Part shown: positions 9,105 to 15,628 of the stretch, in pieces
How positions within the stretch are numbered: the first letter of the stretch is position 1
How the letters are laid out: each line of letters begins with the position of its first letter
NCBI GenBank assembly: GCA_019635275.1
Contig: JAHBZV010000028.1
Span: 1 to 39,721, forward strand
Direction: 5' to 3'
From: Burkholderiaceae bacterium
GTDB lineage: Bacteria > Pseudomonadota > Gammaproteobacteria > Burkholderiales > Burkholderiaceae_E
DNA length: 39,721 nt
Notes under the pieces: generated by a model
What the model saw: the letters and a program-made list of their open reading frames with translations, nothing else
Database searches by the model: none
Told to the model about the DNA's origin: nothing
Made by a program: the position numbers and the translations under genes

Positions 9105-9168
9105 TCCCGGTTCCTTGCCGCACGGTGTATCGACGCTATGGCGCCGGCGGCCTTTGTCCACAAGGTAC

Positions 9169-9241
9169 GCCCGCGCGACGGGCACGCGTCACGACAGCCT
9201 CCGGCCCGTGGGCCGCATCGAGCATCGGCCCCCAGGGCCGA
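9169..9241 (+). promoter_or_regulatory. Structured rpsF leader with competing hairpins
   Basis: Three inverted repeats lie in the leader: GCCCG/CGGGC (9169-9183), CGGCCC/GGGCCG (9202-9215) and TCGGCCC/GGGCCGA (9225-9241). The second and third share the same arm sequences, so the outer arms could pair instead (9202-9207 with 9235-9240). Known rpsF leaders in other bacteria bind the S6:S18 complex for autoregulation; whether this one does is inference. Confidence 0.4.
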
Positions 9242-9290
9242 CGGGGCTGACCGTGACGTCGTCGCGAGGGTGTCCGCACCAGGAGAACCG

Positions 9291-9656
9291 ATGCGTCACT
9301 ACGAAATCGTGCTGATCGTCCACCCCGACCAGAGCGAGCAGGTGCCCGCGATGATCGAGCGGTACAAGGCGATGATCGAGGCCCAGGAGGGCAAGGTCCA
9401 CCGGATCGAGGACTGGGGTCGGCGCCAGCTGACCTATCCGATCCAGAAGGTGGCCAAGGCTCACTACGTGCTGGTCAACATCGAATGCGGCAAGCCCACG
9501 CTCGACGAGCTCGAGCATGCCTTCCGCTTCAACGACGCGGTGCTGCGCCACCTCATCGTCGCGATGAAGAAGGCCGAGACGGGCGCCTCGCCGATGTGGA
9601 AGCAGATCCAGAAGGAAGAGGCCCGCAAGGCCGCTTCCGAGACGACGCAGGCCTGA
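9291..9656 (+). CDS. rpsF: 30S ribosomal protein S6
   Basis: A 121-residue protein that begins [18 protein letters not shown], the classical S6 N-terminus, with the family phrases [16 protein letters not shown] and YVLVNIEC. S6 binds S18 and helps assemble the platform of the small subunit. The C-terminal extension is Lys/Glu-rich, as usual in proteobacteria. The ATG at 9291 follows AGGAG; an upstream in-frame extension exists but does not resemble S6. It is first in the operon rpsF-priB-rpsR-rplI behind a strong promoter and a structured leader. Confidence 0.98.
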
Positions 9657-9740
9657 CGGCGCGCTGGCGTCGCGGCAGCCGATTCCGTGGGCAGCGAAGC
9701 CGGGAGCGAAGTTGGCAGCAAGGTCGACAGCGAAGCTGCG

Positions 9741-10052
9741 ATGGCGTCCAACCGGGTCGAGCTGTCCGGCGTGCTGGTCGAGCGCGAGGCGCTTCGGTAC
9801 ACGCCGGCGGGCATCGCGATGCTGAACGCGCGACTGAGCCACGGCTCGGAAGTGCGCGAGGCGGGGCAACCGAGGCAGGTCGAGTTCGACGTGGCCGTGC
9901 GCTTCGCGGGTTCGATTGCGGCGCGTGCCGACCGGCTGGCGCTCGGCGAGCAGGTCCTCGTCACCGGCTTCCTCGCGCCGCGCCGCCGCCAGTCGAAATC
10001 GCTCGTGCTGCACGTCACCGACTTCGCGTCGCCGCACCGATCAACGAATTGA
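9741..10052 (+). CDS. priB: Primosomal replication protein N
   Basis: A 103-residue single-stranded-DNA-binding OB-fold protein. It begins ASNRVELSGVLVEREALRYT, continues with GIAMLNARLSH, QVEFDVAVRFAG and GEQVLVTGFLAPRRR, and matches PriB in length and order. PriB acts with PriA and DnaT in restarting stalled replication forks. An open frame reaches back to a GTG at 9687, adding a Gly/Ser/Glu repeat-like stretch (GSEAGSEVGSKVDSE) unlike PriB; I prefer the ATG at 9741. Its place between rpsF and rpsR is the standard one in beta- and gammaproteobacteria. Confidence 0.93.
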   Translation: MASNRVELSGVLVEREALRYTPAGIAMLNARLSHGSEVREAGQPRQVEFDVAVRFAGSIAARADRLALGEQVLVTGFLAPRRRQSKSLVLHVTDFASPHRSTN

Positions 10053-10076
10053 ATTGACAGGGAAAGAGAGAACACC

Positions 10077-10352
10077 ATGGCCACCTTTCGCCGCGGTTCC
10101 AAGGACAAGAAACCTCGCCGTCCGTCGCAGAGCGCGCTGTTCAAGCGCAAGAAGTTCTGCCGCTTCACGGCCGAGAAGATCGAGTGGATCGATTACAAGG
10201 ACATCGACCTGCTGAAGGACTTCATCACCGACACCGGCAAGATCATCCCGGCGCGCCTGACGGGCACGAAGGCGCGTTACCAGCGCCAGCTGCAGGATGC
10301 GATCAAGCGCGCGCGCTTCCTCGCGCTGCTGCCGTACACCGACAACCACTGA
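10077..10352 (+). CDS. rpsR: 30S ribosomal protein S18
   Basis: A 91-residue basic protein with the S18 core [20 protein letters not shown], followed by [20 protein letters not shown] and [19 protein letters not shown]18 pairs with S6 on the 30S platform. A purine-rich ribosome-binding site (GGGAAAGAGAG) precedes the ATG by about 9 bases. Third gene of the rpsF operon. Confidence 0.98.
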
Positions 10353-10368
10353 GCCGGGGAATCACGAG

Positions 10369-10821
10369 ATGCAAGTCATCCTGCTCGAAAAACTCGTCAA
10401 CCTGGGCCAGCTCGGTGACGTCGTGAAGGTCCGCGACGGCTACGCGCGCAACTTCCTGATCCCGCAGGGCAAGGCGCGTCGCGCCACCGATGCGGCCATC
10501 AAGGAATTCGAGACGCGCCGTGCCGAACTCGAGAAGGCGCAGGCCGATCGCCTGACTGCCGCCCAGGCCCTGGGCGAGAAGCTCAACGGCGCGACGATCC
10601 GGATCACCGAGAAGGCCGGCGTCGACGGCCGCCTGTTCGGTTCGGTCACCAACTTCGACATCGCGGAGAACCTGAAGAAGCAGGGCTACGCGGTCGAGAA
10701 GGGCATGGTCCGCATGCCGGCCGGGCCGCTGAAGACGATCGGCGACGCGACGGTCGACGTCGCGCTGCACAGCGACGTGGTCGTGCAGATCACGGTGTCG
10801 GTCGCCGGCGAAACGGCCTGA
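10369..10821 (+). CDS. rplI: 50S ribosomal protein L9
   Basis: A 150-residue protein with the L9 N-domain ([19 protein letters not shown], then [14 protein letters not shown]), the long connecting helix (about residues 41-75, [17 protein letters not shown]) and the C-domain containing [15 protein letters not shown]9 binds 23S rRNA and reaches to neighbouring ribosomes. It closes the rpsF operon and is followed directly by a terminator. Confidence 0.98.
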
Positions 10822-10876: not shown

Positions 10877-10957
10877 TCTGAAGTGCAGCGCTGCGCCGCG
10901 AAATTCTCTAAGATTGAGAACTCGCTTCCCGCCCCGTCGCAGCCCCTCCGAGCCTCG

Positions 10958-13405
10958 ATGTCCGCCGTTCCCAGTTCATTGCCGGATCACGATCCGCAGG
11001 TCGCCGCGCTGCGCGTGCCCCCGCATTCGATCGAGGCCGAGCAGGCCGTGCTGGGCGGCCTGCTGCTCGACAACACCGCCTTCGACCGCGTCGCCGACGT
11101 GTTGCGCGAGGAGGACTTCTACCGCCACGACCACCGGCTGATCTGGCACCAGATCGCGCGCCTGATCGAGCGCAGCCAGCCCGCCGACGTGGTCACCGTC
11201 TACGAGGCGCTGCAGTCGCTGGGCAAGGCCGAGGAGGCCGGCGGGCTCGCGTACCTGAACTCGCTCGCGCAGGAGACGCCGTCGGCGGCGAACATCCGCC
11301 GCTACGGCGAAATCGTCCGTGACCGCTCGATCCTGCGCAAGCTGATCTCTACCTCCGACGAGATCTCGACCTCGGCGCTCAATCCGCAGGGCAAGGACAC
11401 GCGCCAGCTGCTCGACGAGGCCGAGTCGAAGGTGTTCCAGATCTCCGAAGACGGCTCGCGCGGCCAGGCCGGCTTCCAGCCGCTGCCCGACCTGCTCGGC
11501 AAGGTCGTCGAACGCATCGACGAGCTGTACAACCAGAACAACCCGAACGACGTGACCGGCGTGCCCACCGGCTACGTCGACCTCGACCGGATGACCTCGG
11601 GGTTGCAGCCGGGCGACCTGGTGATCGTGGCCGGACGCCCGTCGATGGGCAAGGCGCAGCCGCTGGACGCGAAGATCCGCCTGCGCACCGGGTGGAAGCC
11701 GATGAGCGAGATCGCGGTCGGCGACGCGCTGGCGTCGATCGACGGCGCGCCGTCCATCGTCACCGGCATATTCCCGCAAGGCGAGCGACAGGTCTATCGC
11801 ATACGGTTCTCCGATGGGCGCAGCACCGAGTGCTGCGATGAGCATCTATGGCGTGTCCGGTATCGCGGCTGGGTCGCGCCGCGCGTCGTGAGCACGGCGC
11901 GGCTGCGCGAGATGCTCGAGCGGGTGCGATACCGCAACCGGCTCTGGATCGACATGCCGTCCGGGGACTTCGGCGCCGACGATCCGCTGCCGGTCGATCC
12001 GTGGGTGGTCGGCGCGTTGCTGGGCGACGGCTGCCTGCGGCACAACTCGGTGATGTTCTCGAACGCCGCCGCGGAAGTGCTCGATCGCATGCGTGCTCGC
12101 GTCGGCAGCGAACTGGTCCTGCAGCATGCGTCGGCCTACGACTGGCGGATCGTGCAGCCCAACCGCGGCGCGGTGGCCGGTCACGCCGGCCGGCATCCGA
12201 ATCCGCTGAAGCTGCAACTCGAAGCGCTCGGCCTGTGGGGTCGGTCTTCGCACGAGAAGTTCATTCCGGAGGTCTACCTGAACGCGGGCCGGCAGGCGAG
12301 GCTCGACCTGCTGCGCGGCTTGCTCGATACCGACGGCTGGGTCGAGCGGTGGGGCACGGTGCGCCTGTCCACTGCCAGCGAGCGCCTGGCGCTCGATCTC
12401 CAGGCGCTTGCGCGCTCGCTCGGCGGCTGGTGTTCGATCAGGGCCAAGCGTCCGACCTTCCGCGTCGACGGCGAGCGACGCGACGGGCTGCCGGCTTTCG
12501 TCTGCACGATCAGCCACCCCGAGCCGGCGAGCCTGTTCCTGCTCGGTGACAAGGTGGCGCGCGTGGCGCATGGGCGCGTGGCGCATGGGCGCGTGCGCCG
12601 TAAGCTGCCGGTGATCGTGTCGATCGAAGCCACGCGGCGCACGGCGGTGCAGTGCATCGCAGTGTCGCATCCCAGTCGGCTCTACATCACCGACGACTAC
12701 GTGGTGACGCACAACACCTCCCTCGCGCTGAACATCGCCGAGCACGTCGCGGTCGACCAGGGCCTGCCGGTGGCCGTGTTCTCGATGGAGATGGGGGCGA
12801 CGCAACTCGCGATGCGGATGGTGTGCTCGGTCGGCCGGCTCGACCAGCAGCGGTTGCGCACCGGACGGCTGATCGACGACGACTGGCCGCGGCTCACCAG
12901 TGCCATCCAGAAGATGCAGGATTCCCAGCTGTTCATCGACGAGACGCCGGCGCTCAACGCGCTCGAGCTGCGTGCGCGCGCGCGGCGGCTGTCGCGCCAG
13001 TGCGGCAAGCTTGGCCTGATCGTCGTCGACTACCTGCAGCTGATGTCGGCCACCAGCAGCGGCGAGAACCGTGCGACCGAGATCTCGGAGATCTCGCGCG
13101 CGTTGAAGGCGCTGGCCAAGGAACTCGACTGCCCGGTGATCGCGCTGTCGCAGCTCAACCGCTCGCTCGAGCAGCGCCCGAACAAGCGGCCGGTGATGTC
13201 CGACCTGCGCGAATCCGGCGCGATAGAACAGGATGCAGACGTGATCGTCTTCATCTACCGCGACGAGGTGTACAACCCCGACTCGACCGACAAGGGCGTC
13301 GCCGAGATCATCATCGGCAAGCAGCGCAACGGCCCGATCGGCACCGTGCGCCTCACCTTCGTCGGTCAGTACACGAAGTTCGAGAACTTCACCGCCGGCG
13401 TCTAG
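10958..13405 (+). CDS. dnaB: Replicative DNA helicase DnaB, intein-containing precursor
   Basis: An 815-residue precursor; removing the 354-residue intein leaves a 461-residue DnaB, the usual size. The N-domain (residues about 20-120) starts VPPHSIEAEQAVLGGLLLDN. The RecA-like ATPase domain begins near 175, with TGVPTGYVDLDRMTSGLQPG. The Walker A loop is GRPSMGK (226-232) joined after splicing to TSLALNIAEH (from 587). Downstream are FSMEMGATQLAMRM, the Walker B/H3 region LIVVDYLQLMS, and the DNA-binding end SDLRESGAIEQDADV. DnaB unwinds DNA at the replication fork, so the cell depends on correct splicing because the ATP site is interrupted. The ATG at 10958 fits the family N-terminus; the upstream in-frame extension does not. 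It is separated from rplI by a terminator and must have its own promoter. Confidence 0.97.
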   Translation: MSAVPSSLPDHDPQVAALRVPPHSIEAEQAVLGGLLLDNTAFDRVADVLREEDFYRHDHRLIWHQIARLIERSQPADVVTVYEALQSLGKAEEAGGLAYLNSLAQETPSAANIRRYGEIVRDRSILRKLISTSDEISTSALNPQGKDTRQLLDEAESKVFQISEDGSRGQAGFQPLPDLLGKVVERIDELYNQNNPNDVTGVPTGYVDLDRMTSGLQPGDLVIVAGRPSMGKAQPLDAKIRLRTGWKPMSEIAVGDALASIDGAPSIVTGIFPQGERQVYRIRFSDGRSTECCDEHLWRVRYRGWVAPRVVSTARLREMLERVRYRNRLWIDMPSGDFGADDPLPVDPWVVGALLGDGCLRHNSVMFSNAAAEVLDRMRARVGSELVLQHASAYDWRIVQPNRGAVAGHAGRHPNPLKLQLEALGLWGRSSHEKFIPEVYLNAGRQARLDLLRGLLDTDGWVERWGTVRLSTASERLALDLQALARSLGGWCSIRAKRPTFRVDGERRDGLPAFVCTISHPEPASLFLLGDKVARVAHGRVAHGRVRRKLPVIVSIEATRRTAVQCIAVSHPSRLYITDDYVVTHNTSLALNIAEHVAVDQGLPVAVFSMEMGATQLAMRMVCSVGRLDQQRLRTGRLIDDDWPRLTSAIQKMQDSQLFIDETPALNALELRARARRLSRQCGKLGLIVVDYLQLMSATSSGENRATEISEISRALKALAKELDCPVIALSQLNRSLEQRPNKRPVMSDLRESGAIEQDADVIVFIYRDEVYNPDSTDKGVAEIIIGKQRNGPIGTVRLTFVGQYTKFENFTAGV
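11654..12715 (+). mobile_element. Class 3 DnaB intein with LAGLIDADG homing endonuclease
   Basis: A 354-residue in-frame insertion in the Walker A loop, between Lys232 and the Thr that completes GKT. Its first residue is Ala (AQPLDAKIRL), not Cys or Ser. The class 3 Trp-Cys-Thr triplet is present: Trp66 in block B (CDEHLW), Cys334 in block F (VQCIAV) and Thr352 before the terminal His353-Asn354; the next residue is Thr. In class 3 inteins the block F Cys performs the first acyl shift. Endonuclease motifs GALLGDG (120-126) and RGLLDTDGWV (221-230) give candidate catalytic Asp125 and Asp227, so homing may still work. Rare ATA and CTA codons near the N-terminus suggest transfer. Confidence 0.93.
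12560..12594 (+). repeat. 15-base tandem duplication inside the intein
   Basis: The 15-base unit CGCGTGGCGCATGGG occurs twice in tandem followed by a partial third copy, encoding VAHGRVAHGRV at intein residues 304-314. It lies between the endonuclease region and the C-terminal splicing blocks, in a likely linker, and looks like a recent in-frame slippage event. Confidence 0.8.
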
Positions 13406-13422: not shown

Positions 13423-15120
13423 TCAGAGCGCGTCGGTGGCGAAGTCCGCCAGCCGCGAGCGCTCGCCGCGCTGCAGCGTGACATGGCCCGCATGCGGCCA
13501 GCCCTTGAAGCGGTCGACGACGTAGGTGAGGCCCGACGAGCCTTCGGTGAGATAGGGCGTGTCGATCTGCGCGATGTTGCCCAGGCAGACGACCTTGGTG
13601 CCGGGCCCCGCGCGCGTGACCAGCGTCTTCATCTGCTTCGGCGTGAGGTTCTGCGCCTCGTCGATGATCAGGTACTTGTTGCTGAACGTGCGTCCGCGCA
13701 TGAACGACAGCGCCTTGACCTTGACCCGGCTGCGGATCAGGTCGTTGGCGGTGGCGCGGCCCCATTCGCCGGCCGAAGGGTCGCTCTGGTTGAGTACCTC
13801 GAGGTTGTCTTCGAGCGCGCCCATCCACGGCTGCATCTTCTCTTCCTCGGTGCCCGGCAGGTAGCCGATGTCTTCCCCGACCGGCACCGTGGCGCGCGTC
13901 ATGATGATCTCGGTGTAGCGCTTGGTCTCGAGCACCTGCACGAGCCCGGCGGCCAGCGCGATCAGCGTCTTGCCGGTGCCCGCCTGCCCGAGCAGCGTGA
14001 TGAAGTCGATCTCGGGGTTCATCAGCAGGTTCAGCGCGAAGTTCTGCTCGCGGTTGCGCGCGGTGATGCCCCAGACCGCGTTCTTGTGGTGGCCGTAGTC
14101 GCGCAGCGTCTGGAGCACCGCGGTGCGCCCGGTGATCTCGCGCACCTGCGCCACCAGCGGCATGTCGCCTTCGAAGTAGACGAACTGGTTCAGCAGCAGC
14201 GACGACACCAGCGGGCCGCTGATCCGGTAGAAGGTCTGCCCGCCCTGCTGCCACGACTCGACGCCCTTGCCGTGCTTCTCCCAGAAGTCGGCGGGCAGGG
14301 CCAGCACGCCGGTGTAGAGCAGGTCGGTATCCTCGAGGACCTGGTCGTTGAAGTAGTCTTCGGCGGGCAGGCCCATCGTGTGGGCCTTGATCCGCATGTT
14401 GATGTCCTTGGACACCAGCACGACCTGACGGTCGGGCAACTGGTCCTGCATCGCACGGACCACCCCGAGGATCTGGTTGTCGGCCTTGCCCATCGGCAGG
14501 CTCGACGGCAGCATCGGCGCGATCGCCTGCGTCTGGAAGAACAGCCGGCCCTGCGCGTCGCGGTTGCCGAGCGCCGACAGCGCGATGCCCTGCTCGATGT
14601 CGCCGCCGGTGGCGATCAGCGCATCGAGCGAGCGGCTGACCTGCCGAGCGTTGCGTGAGACCTCGGACATGCCCTTCTTGTGGTTGTCGAGTTCTTCGAG
14701 CGTCATCATCGGCAGGTAGACGTCGTGCTCGGCGAAGCGGAAGAGGCTGCTCGGGTCGTGCATCAGCACGTTGGTGTCGAGCACGAAGAGCTTGGGCAGG
14801 CGAGCGGCCTGGCGCCGGGGCTCGCGCCGCGGCGCGGTGCCGGCGCGCGGCGCGGCGTGGCGCGCGGCGCCCGGCACGCTAGCCGCGGAACGCTCGGCGT
14901 GCGGCGCCGAAGGCGCGGCCGGGGTGACCGGGGCCACCGCCGGGACCGGCGCAGGCTGGGCGGCCGCCCCGCGCGCGGCGCTCATCGGCACGACTTCGTG
15001 GGCGGTGGCGGGCGCCGATTTCGACGGCCGCGCCGTGGCCGGTCGCGTGGCGCGCGCCTCGACGGCGCTGGAGATGTCGAGCAGGGTGGCGGGCTTGCCT
15101 GGCGGCTTGGGAAGCGGCAT
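13423..15120 (-). CDS. phoH: PIN domain-PhoH family ATPase
   Basis: A 565-residue protein of the PIN-PhoH (PhoH2-like) type. Residues 1-115 are a low-complexity Ala/Pro/Arg region without a known domain. A PIN ribonuclease domain follows (KLFVLDTNVLMHDPSSLF, acidic DTN site; later EELDNHKKG). The PhoH ATPase has Walker A GQAGTGKT and Walker B YLIIDEAQNLTPKQMK, and ends near SSGLTYVVDRFKGW. Family members couple RNA cleavage by PIN to ATP-driven unwinding. The ATG at 15120 is preferred over an upstream in-frame start that overlaps the peroxiredoxin gene. It is the last gene of a minus-strand operon with the peroxiredoxin and Mth938-like genes, and converges on dnaB with a 17-base gap. The RNA target is unknown. 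Confidence 0.93.
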   Translation of the reverse strand: MPLPKPPGKPATLLDISSAVEARATRPATARPSKSAPATAHEVVPMSAARGAAAQPAPVPAVAPVTPAAPSAPHAERSAASVPGAARHAAPRAGTAPRREPRRQAARLPKLFVLDTNVLMHDPSSLFRFAEHDVYLPMMTLEELDNHKKGMSEVSRNARQVSRSLDALIATGGDIEQGIALSALGNRDAQGRLFFQTQAIAPMLPSSLPMGKADNQILGVVRAMQDQLPDRQVVLVSKDINMRIKAHTMGLPAEDYFNDQVLEDTDLLYTGVLALPADFWEKHGKGVESWQQGGQTFYRISGPLVSSLLLNQFVYFEGDMPLVAQVREITGRTAVLQTLRDYGHHKNAVWGITARNREQNFALNLLMNPEIDFITLLGQAGTGKTLIALAAGLVQVLETKRYTEIIMTRATVPVGEDIGYLPGTEEEKMQPWMGALEDNLEVLNQSDPSAGEWGRATANDLIRSRVKVKALSFMRGRTFSNKYLIIDEAQNLTPKQMKTLVTRAGPGTKVVCLGNIAQIDTPYLTEGSSGLTYVVDRFKGWPHAGHVTLQRGERSRLADFATDAL

Positions 15121-15145
15121 GGTGGGATCGATCGGGAGGGGAGGA

Positions 15146-15628
15146 TCAGGAGATCGATCGCACGACCTCCAGGACTTCTGCAACGTGGCCGGGCACCTTC
15201 ACGCCGCGCCATTCGTGCGCGAGCTTGCCGACGGTGTCGATGACGAAGGTGGAACGCTCGATGCCGCGAACCTGGCGGCCGTACATCGTCTTGAGCTTCA
15301 TGACCCCGAACTGCTCGCACAACGCTTCGTCGGGATCGGAGACGAGCTCGTAGGGCAAGCCCAGCTTCCCCTTGAAGCCCTCGTGCGACTTCAGGCTGTC
15401 CCGCGACACGCCGAGCACGACCGCGCCCGCCTCGGCGAACGCGGCATGGAGCTCGCGGAAGTCACCCGCCTCGTTGGTGCAGCCCGGCGTGTTGTCCTTC
15501 GGATAGAAGAACAGGACGAGCTTGCGTCCCTTCAGTGTCGACAGTCTGACTTCGCCGCCGGTGGAGGCAGCGCTGAAATCGGGGACTTTCCTGCCGATCG
15601 CGACGCTCAACGAACCCTCTGCAGGCAA
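15146..15628 (-). CDS. bcp: Thioredoxin-dependent peroxiredoxin, Bcp/PrxQ type
   Basis: A 160-residue peroxidase that reduces hydrogen and organic peroxides. The active motif YPKDNTPGCTNEAGDF places the peroxidatic cysteine at residue 50 (numbered from the TTG at 15628). The E. coli-type resolving Cys five residues later is Gly55, and the alternative PrxQ position around residue 86 is Lys. The only other visible Cys is C104 in DEALCEQFG, so the resolving partner is unclear. There is no ATG start: the frame opens with TTG at 15628 or TTG at 15610. The latter has GAGGG just upstream and gives a more usual N-terminus (LSVAIGRKVPDF). It lies between the Mth938-like gene (37-base gap) and phoH (25-base gap). 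Confidence 0.94.
   Translation of the reverse strand: MPAEGSLSVAIGRKVPDFSAASTGGEVRLSTLKGRKLVLFFYPKDNTPGCTNEAGDFRELHAAFAEAGAVVLGVSRDSLKSHEGFKGKLGLPYELVSDPDEALCEQFGVMKLKTMYGRQVRGIERSTFVIDTVGKLAHEWRGVKVPGHVAEVLEVVRSIS

What the first reader, a model, noticed from the sequence alone, without database searches (positions are those of the whole stretch)
11654..12715. Class 3 intein in the ATP-binding loop of a betaproteobacterial DnaB
The insertion starts with Ala and carries the Trp66-Cys334-Thr352 triplet plus His353-Asn354|Thr, the diagnostic set of the rare class 3 splicing mechanism, in which the internal Cys starts the reaction. It splits GRPSMGK from T, so the helicase is inactive until splicing. 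LAGLIDADG motifs with both acidic residues are intact, so homing may still occur. A cysteine-started splice in an essential replication enzyme could link replication to redox state; that last point is inference.
Basis: partly seen in the sequence, partly recalled or inferred. Interest (0 to 1): 0.75.

Follow-up and report, generated by a model that had tools for sequence, protein, structure and literature searches.

The report
Class 3 intein inside bacterial DnaB
A self-removing, mobile protein segment of a known type sits in the ATP-binding loop of this bacterium's replication helicase; it looks intact, and many related bacteria and viruses carry the same kind.

Summary
Window 11654-12715 encodes a 354-aa intein between GRPSMGK and Thr of DnaB, with Ala1, Trp66, Cys334, Thr352, His353-Asn354, Thr+1 and both LAGLIDADG acidic residues. 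The 120 other full-length relatives counted all keep His64, Trp66, Cys334, Thr352, His353 and Asn354 (the selection favours this). A confident model (pLDDT 93.7) has the intein-plus-endonuclease fold. Class 3 is supported but no longer rare: 1701 were in print by 2020 (PMC7891396). Redox control of a P-loop class 3 DnaB intein was published in 2018 (PMC6195587). That switch does not transfer as such: its partner Cys48 is Val47 here, and Cys in 0 of 120 relatives. This lineage instead has Cys61 (B:7), at a position known to contact the scissile bond, and keeps the positions of the Msm zinc contacts. Both are untested openings. In the genus, 6 of 17 readable P-loops are occupied and 11 empty. 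dN/dS of the endonuclease half is 0.13 against the closest relative. Most likely a live mobile element: a new member of a known kind.

The parts
10883..13405 (+). Intein-containing DnaB ORF (longest GTG start; an ATG at 10958 may be the true start)
   Evidence: NCBIfam PRK07004 replicative DNA helicase E 6.9e-259
10883..11653 (+). DnaB N-extein, ends GRPSMGK (Walker A)
11654..12715 (+). Class 3 intein, 354 aa, Ala1 to Asn354
11834..11836 (+). Cys61, block B position 7, first residue of the block-B CxxH (T/DxxH in other inteins)
   Evidence: alignment
11849..11851 (+). Trp66 (B:12)
   Evidence: 120 of 120 counted relatives
12005..12031 (+). LAGLIDADG motif 1, VVGALLGDG, acidic D125
12311..12337 (+). 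LAGLIDADG motif 2, LRGLLDTDG, acidic D227
12653..12655 (+). Cys334 (F:4), expected initiating nucleophile
   Evidence: 120 of 120 counted relatives
12683..12685 (+). Tyr344, aligned with Msm DnaBi1 Tyr128 (zinc contact)
   Evidence: Tyr in 119 of 120 counted relatives; zinc site in PMC7360933
12707..12715 (+). Thr352-His353-Asn354 (G:5-G:7)
   Evidence: 120 of 120 counted relatives
12716..13402 (+). DnaB C-extein, starts with Thr+1

Best explanation
A mobile class 3 intein with a LAGLIDADG endonuclease domain, inserted in the Walker A loop of the only DnaB detected in the genome. The precursor is made in one piece and probably cannot form a normal ATP site. Cys334 attacks the Lys-Ala1 bond to give the block-F branched intermediate, the acyl group passes to Thr+1, Asn354 cyclises, and DnaB is joined without a scar. 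The free intein probably cuts intein-less dnaB alleles at the same conserved site and is copied in by repair. Shown here: sequence, site, motifs, predicted fold, sporadic presence and low dN/dS. Inferred from characterised relatives: the chemistry, splicing competence and homing.
For: Exact class 3 signature and junctions. Catalytic residues kept in 120 of 120 counted relatives. Model pLDDT 93.7, pTM 0.90; Foldseek 1lwt (PI-SceI) E 2.3e-15 over both domains, and the splicing domain on 6bs8 (Msm class 3) E 4.7e-5, rmsd 1.6 for the best chain. In a splicing-domain tree it sits with other WCT inteins, apart from 6 class 1 rows, though that split is weak (67/75). dN/dS against its closest relative (L002) is 0.13 overall and 0.13 over residues 100-300, at dS 0.21-0.22. 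P-loop occupied in 6 of 17 readable genomes of the genus, empty in 11, one genome without a match. One match to the DnaB ATPase part in the own genome at E 0.001, so the host should need splicing.
Against: No biochemical test. The own genome is 86.8% complete, so a second DnaB could be missed. Homing is not observed. dN/dS over residues 100-300 is higher against the 7 more distant relatives compared (0.20-0.50), and a low ratio shows past, not present, constraint. In 9 of 10 comparisons the inteins differ more at silent sites than their exteins do, L002 being the exception: this fits repeated gain, but uneven codon constraint could also produce it. The fold does not separate class 3 from class 1: gp41-1 scores about as well as 6bs8.
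Confidence: 0.93

Rival explanations
1. A regulatory intein: splicing of DnaB is paused by oxidation or zinc acting on Cys334, and so gates replication under stress.
For: Published for Msm DnaBi1, also in the P-loop, with H2O2 (PMC6195587) and zinc (PMC7360933); a figure legend in PMC7664689 reports H2O2 inhibition of N-cleavage in the M. chimaera intein. The three zinc-contact positions are present here as C334, I335 (a backbone contact in Msm) and Y344 (Tyr in 119 of 120). Cys61 at B:7 is in 103 of 120 counted relatives; in 35 of 40 genome contigs relatives ending in DDYVVTHN, a subset less biased by the CC search pattern, and 9 of 9 loci from the near-relative genomes; and in 12 of 12 newly fetched loci that could be read from the order-wide survey, a 13th (L148) not being full-length.
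Against: The Msm disulfide partner Cys48 is Val47 here and is Cys in 0 of 120 counted relatives. Cys61 is less general in viral relatives: 18 of 29 of those ending in DDYVVTHN. The window lineage is separate from the group with the mycobacterial inteins. Any exposed catalytic Cys can be inhibited, so inhibition alone is not regulation. 11 of 17 congeners lack the intein, so the host does not need such control.
Confidence: 0.2
2. A decayed or very slow intein kept only because some precursor splices; the endonuclease is dead.
For: Decay is seen in the family: 9 of 88 bacterial and 6 of 33 viral sequences (duplicate loci included) lost one or both acidic residues. The window carries a 15-bp tandem duplication in the linker, absent from the four relatives shown.
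Against: All catalytic residues are present, the model is confident, both LAGLIDADG acids are present, and dN/dS against the closest relative is low across the endonuclease.
Confidence: 0.05
3. Class 2 chemistry: Thr+1 attacks the N-junction directly and Cys334 is a bystander.
For: Ala1 cannot start the reaction; classes 2 and 3 both lack a nucleophile at residue 1 (PMC5222942).
Against: The whole WCT triplet is present, with Cys at F:4 in every counted relative; three characterised class 3 mini-inteins absolutely require this Cys (PMC5222942).
Confidence: 0.02

Closest known systems
Mycobacterium smegmatis DnaBi1 / M. chimaera DnaB1 class 3 inteins (PDB 6bs8, 6own, 6rix, 6riy)
   Same: Same host protein, P-loop insertion (stated for Msm), WCT triplet, HINT fold, and the positions of the zinc-contact residues
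   Different: The solved chains are mini-inteins of 139-146 aa without endonuclease; they carry Cys at the Cys48 position and Asp at B:7 (DxxH), while the window has Val47 and Cys61 (CxxH) and a full LAGLIDADG domain; separate branch in the tree
DnaB P-loop class 3 inteins of Burkholderiales (Lautropia sp. SCN 69-89, Burkholderia, Paraburkholderia, Trinickia, Quisquiliibacterium, Polynucleobacter)
   Same: Same site, similar length, same motifs and block-B CC; 50-93% identity
   Different: Only sequence differences; the closest (L002, by contig number and position the same as L056, Burkholderiaceae bacterium PRO11, 93%) also carries part of a second intein in DnaB
Phage class 3 inteins (Xanthomonas phage LucasX DnaB, jumbo-phage helicases, mycobacteriophage proteins)
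   Same: Similar inteins, mostly with endonuclease-length inserts; 507 of 50,697 phage records match; 6 of 6 phage loci read have Trp B:12, Cys F:4 and Thr G:5
   Different: The best full-length match in that collection is 40% identical; several other host proteins such as terminases and helicases
PI-SceI and other LAGLIDADG inteins
   Same: Same domain order and endonuclease motifs
   Different: Class 1 splicing with Cys1 (recalled); different host; overall rmsd above 6 A because the two domains sit differently (reason inferred)

Membership tests
Class 3 intein | No Cys/Ser/Thr at intein position 1 | tested here: met
   Ala1; among 120 relatives Ala in 110, Cys in 3, Ser in 1, others in 6
Class 3 intein | Trp B:12, Cys F:4, Thr G:5 | tested here: met
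   W66, C334, T352; 120 of 120 counted relatives each
Class 3 intein | His B:10, His G:6, Asn G:7 | tested here: met
   H64, H353, N354; 120 of 120 counted relatives each
Class 3 intein | Ser or Thr at +1 | tested here: met
   Thr+1
Class 3 intein | HINT fold | tested here: met
   AlphaFold2 model matches 6bs8 chains C and A and 6rix_B at rmsd 1.6-2.0, other chains of 6bs8, 6rix and 6riy at 3.0-6.1; class 1 gp41-1 matches equally well
Class 3 intein | Groups with class 3 and not with class 1 inteins | tested here: inconclusive
   Split seen, but support only 67/75 on 142 columns with 6 class 1 rows
Class 3 intein | Cys F:4 starts splicing via a block-F branched intermediate | not testable with these tools
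   Needs protein chemistry
LAGLIDADG homing endonuclease intein | Two LAGLIDADG motifs with acidic residue, Pfam domain | tested here: met
   D125 and D227; PF14528 E 6.7e-8 over residues 218-264; both motifs aligned with PI-SceI
LAGLIDADG homing endonuclease intein | Cuts the empty site and homes | not testable with these tools
   Only indirect: 6 of 17 occupied, dN/dS 0.13 against L002
Msm DnaBi1-type redox switch | Cys at Msm position 48 to pair with catalytic Cys | tested here: not met
   Val47; Cys in 0 of 120 counted relatives
Msm DnaBi1-type zinc inhibition | Catalytic Cys, next residue backbone, and Tyr ten residues on | tested here: met
   C334, I335, Y344; sequence positions only, zinc binding not tested

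The most novel reading that the evidence does not exclude
The Burkholderiales DnaB class 3 inteins carry a built-in thiol switch different from the mycobacterial one: Cys61 at B:7, a position which in a solved class 3 intein contacts the N-scissile bond, pairs with the initiating Cys334 under oxidation (or both hold zinc), so DnaB maturation stops until the thiols are free. This would be a second, independent switch in the same loop of the same helicase. The passages I saw name only Gly, Asp and Ser at B:7 in characterised class 3 inteins (PMC7891396).
Probability: 0.13. Interest if true: 0.55.

Novelty: new member of a known kind. Interest (0 to 1): 0.22.

Why it matters
As a single intein it adds little. 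As a group, DnaB P-loop class 3 inteins with full endonucleases in Burkholderiales, several from named strains, are counterparts of the endonuclease-less mycobacterial DnaBi1. They allow two tests: whether thiol or zinc sensitivity is a general property of class 3 splicing or a mycobacterial specialisation, and how a full intein loses its endonuclease in one genus where empty, intact and decayed states coexist.

Tried and rejected
Chance motif: rejected (full-length homologues, fold, empty alleles). Class 1: rejected (Ala1, Cys at F:4; contrast the class 1 second-site inteins with Cys1 and Asp at F:4). Direct transfer of the Msm Cys48-Cys118 switch: rejected by alignment. A Cys61-Cys334 distance could not be measured: no coordinates of the model or of PDB entries were found among the files open to scripts (listing).

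Biases in the counts. CCDEHLWR and DDYVVTHN were among the search patterns, and a locus was counted only if its match began at query residue 3 or earlier and ended at residue 354. So conservation of Cys60/61, His64, Trp66 and of the C-terminal THN is favoured by selection. For Cys61 I therefore also counted only sequences ending in DDYVVTHN, and loci from protein-based searches.

Literature searches for this group. By title, none of the papers listed is on betaproteobacterial DnaB inteins (one search listed one unrelated paper, none;'s 32 papers 15 were listed,'s 627 papers 10). Only open-licence papers are held, so this is not proof of absence.

Rows dropped before counts: of 135 loci then held, 121 gave a full-length intein and 14 did not; the 121 rows hold 114 distinct sequences, so counts of 120 include some genomes reached twice. 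Tree: 105 rows with a DnaB-type P-loop reduced to 65 at 88% identity, which also removed L002, the closest relative. Tree: 40 of the held inteins chosen by hand, plus 6 phage loci (the starts of two, L151 and L155, moved by hand), 5 second-site inteins and 3 PDB fragments.

Full report
What is there. The stretch 11654-12715 on the + strand translates to 354 residues without a stop, in frame within a DnaB ORF at 10883-13405. The flanks read ...IVAGRPSMGK / AQPLDA ... DDYVVTHN / TSLALN. The exteins score as DnaB (NCBIfam PRK07004 E 6.9e-259; Pfam DnaB_C and DnaB).

Class. Taking the conserved block-B histidine as B:10 (H64), the tryptophan is B:12, Cys334 is F:4 and Thr352 is G:5. This is the triplet by which PMC5222942 (passages; section 3 read) marks class 3, usually with Ser or Thr at +1. 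I collected relatives from same-genus, family and order genomes, viral contigs and named genomes. Of 135 loci then held, 121 gave full-length inteins. All 120 other than the window keep H64, W66, C334, T352, H353 and N354. Position 1 is Ala in 110, Cys in 3, Ser in 1 and another residue in 6. The search patterns and the demand for a match to the last residue favour such conservation; see Tried and rejected.

Structure. AlphaFold2 on an alignment of 45 sequences gave mean pLDDT 93.7 and pTM 0.90. Foldseek against the PDB ranks PI-SceI and archaeal intein-endonucleases first (1lwt E 2.3e-15, rmsd 8.4 over both domains). Shorter matches to the splicing domain include the WCT-engineered and wild gp41-1 inteins (E 3.3e-5 and 4.0e-5) and the class 3 DnaB inteins of M. 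smegmatis (6bs8_C, E 4.7e-5, rmsd 1.6) and M. chimaera (6riy, 6rix). The sequence profile finds the same families. The fold thus shows an intein with endonuclease; the class rests on the residues.

Endonuclease and mobility. Both LAGLIDADG motifs keep their acidic residue (D125, D227) and align with those of PI-SceI. Against its nearest relative, L002 (93% by blastp), dN/dS is 0.13 for the whole intein, 0.15 for the splicing blocks and 0.13 for residues 100-300, at dS 0.20-0.22. Against the seven more distant relatives compared, residues 100-300 give 0.20-0.50. All are below 1, so the endonuclease half has been under purifying selection. In the genus, a P-loop-spanning query found DnaB in 17 of 18 genomes: 6 carry the intein (including the window's) and 11 run straight through. 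Across the order, 18 of 399 sampled genomes matched at E 1e-20 or better, the window's own included. Decay is visible nearby: 9 of 88 bacterial sequences have lost one or both acidic residues, among them the same-genus L009 and the same-family L007, L008 and L010; so have 6 of 33 viral ones.

Relatedness. In the intein tree the window groups with L003 and L005 of its own genus (99 SH-aLRT), inside an 18-row clade (97) of mainly Burkholderiaceae inteins that also holds a Dyella (Rhodanobacteraceae) and a Paludibacterium (Chromobacteriaceae) intein. L004 of the same genus lies in that clade but outside the trio. L007-L010 lie elsewhere, three of them (L008, L009, L010) on end branches of 0.8 or more, so their places are unsure. 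Extein and intein silent divergence disagree: in 9 of 10 comparisons the inteins are further apart than the exteins (for example L003, dS 0.84 against 0.30), while for L002 they are closer (0.22 against 0.35, on 216 extein codons). This fits repeated horizontal arrival, as expected of a homing element, although silent sites in dnaB may also be more constrained. In a splicing-domain tree Msm DnaBi1, M. chimaera DnaB1 and the mycobacteriophage inteins fall in a 9-row group (97/92) with three viral contigs and an Enterococcus phage. The window falls in a different group of 27 rows, not strongly supported (92/73). The split from class 1 rows is weak (67/75).

Redox claim. PMC6195587 (passages) showed that H2O2 reversibly blocks Msm DnaBi1 splicing through a Cys48-Cys118 disulfide, with the intein also in the P-loop. 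The alignment shows that it does not transfer as such: Cys48 corresponds to Val47, and 0 of 120 counted relatives have Cys there. Two features could still make splicing conditional. First, the Msm zinc site (Cys118, backbone of Val119, Tyr128; PMC7360933 passages) maps to C334, I335 and Y344, with Tyr in 119 of 120. Second, this lineage has Cys at B:7 (Cys61), where class 1 inteins usually have Thr and Msm has Asp. PMC7891396 (section 6 read; passages) says that class 3 inteins in general have no conserved residue at this position and had been characterised with Gly or Asp there. In its own intein the residue is Ser, in hydrogen-bond distance of groups at the N-scissile bond, the bond which the F:4 thiol attacks. 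Proximity of Cys61 and Cys334 is therefore plausible but inferred; I had no coordinates to measure it. Cys61 is common in bacterial relatives (35 of 40 in the less biased subset) and less so in viral ones (18 of 29).

Verdict. A new member of a known kind: an apparently intact, mobile class 3 intein in DnaB. Class 3 is no longer rare (1701 in nr, 82.5% with LAGLIDADG motifs; PMC7891396). The specialist interest lies in the family's Cys61 and zinc-site conservation, which make a testable contrast with the mycobacterial switch. PMC7664689, PMC3196547 and PMC5050341 were seen as passages only. Tori and Perler 2011 was not held and was seen only as a citation. Other titles were seen in listings only.

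Noticed in passing
L002, L004, L011-L015 (same-genus dnaB genes): A second intein sits at SDLRE/SGAIEQ in DnaB of congeners; in L011-L015 it is 422-423 aa and class 1 (Cys1, Asp at F:4, HN/S), in L002 and L004 it runs to the end of the fetched frame and comes beside the P-loop class 3 intein. M. smegmatis DnaB likewise pairs a class 3 P-loop intein with a class 1 one (PMC6195587); whether the second sites are identical was not tested. The frame of the window's own DnaB continues through this site without an insert.
   Followed up: partly
window 12563-12592: 15-bp tandem duplication (GTGGCGCATGGGCGC twice, VAHGR repeated) in the linker between endonuclease and block F; the four relatives shown lack it.
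   Followed up: partly
window 9138-10821: Upstream ORFs read by eye as ribosomal S6, PriB-like, S18 and L9, usual neighbours of dnaB (recalled); not tested with a profile.
   Followed up: no
window 13423-15628, - strand: Downstream ORFs read by eye as a PIN/PhoH-type ATPase (13423-15183) and a peroxiredoxin (15146-15628); PhoH is another intein host (named in a figure legend of PMC6195587) but looks uninterrupted here; not tested.
   Followed up: no
G009:C13:14422-14781 (L159): P-loop is empty but the open frame is 816 aa, longer than the roughly 490-540 aa of four other frames with an empty P-loop, so another insert may lie downstream.
   Followed up: no
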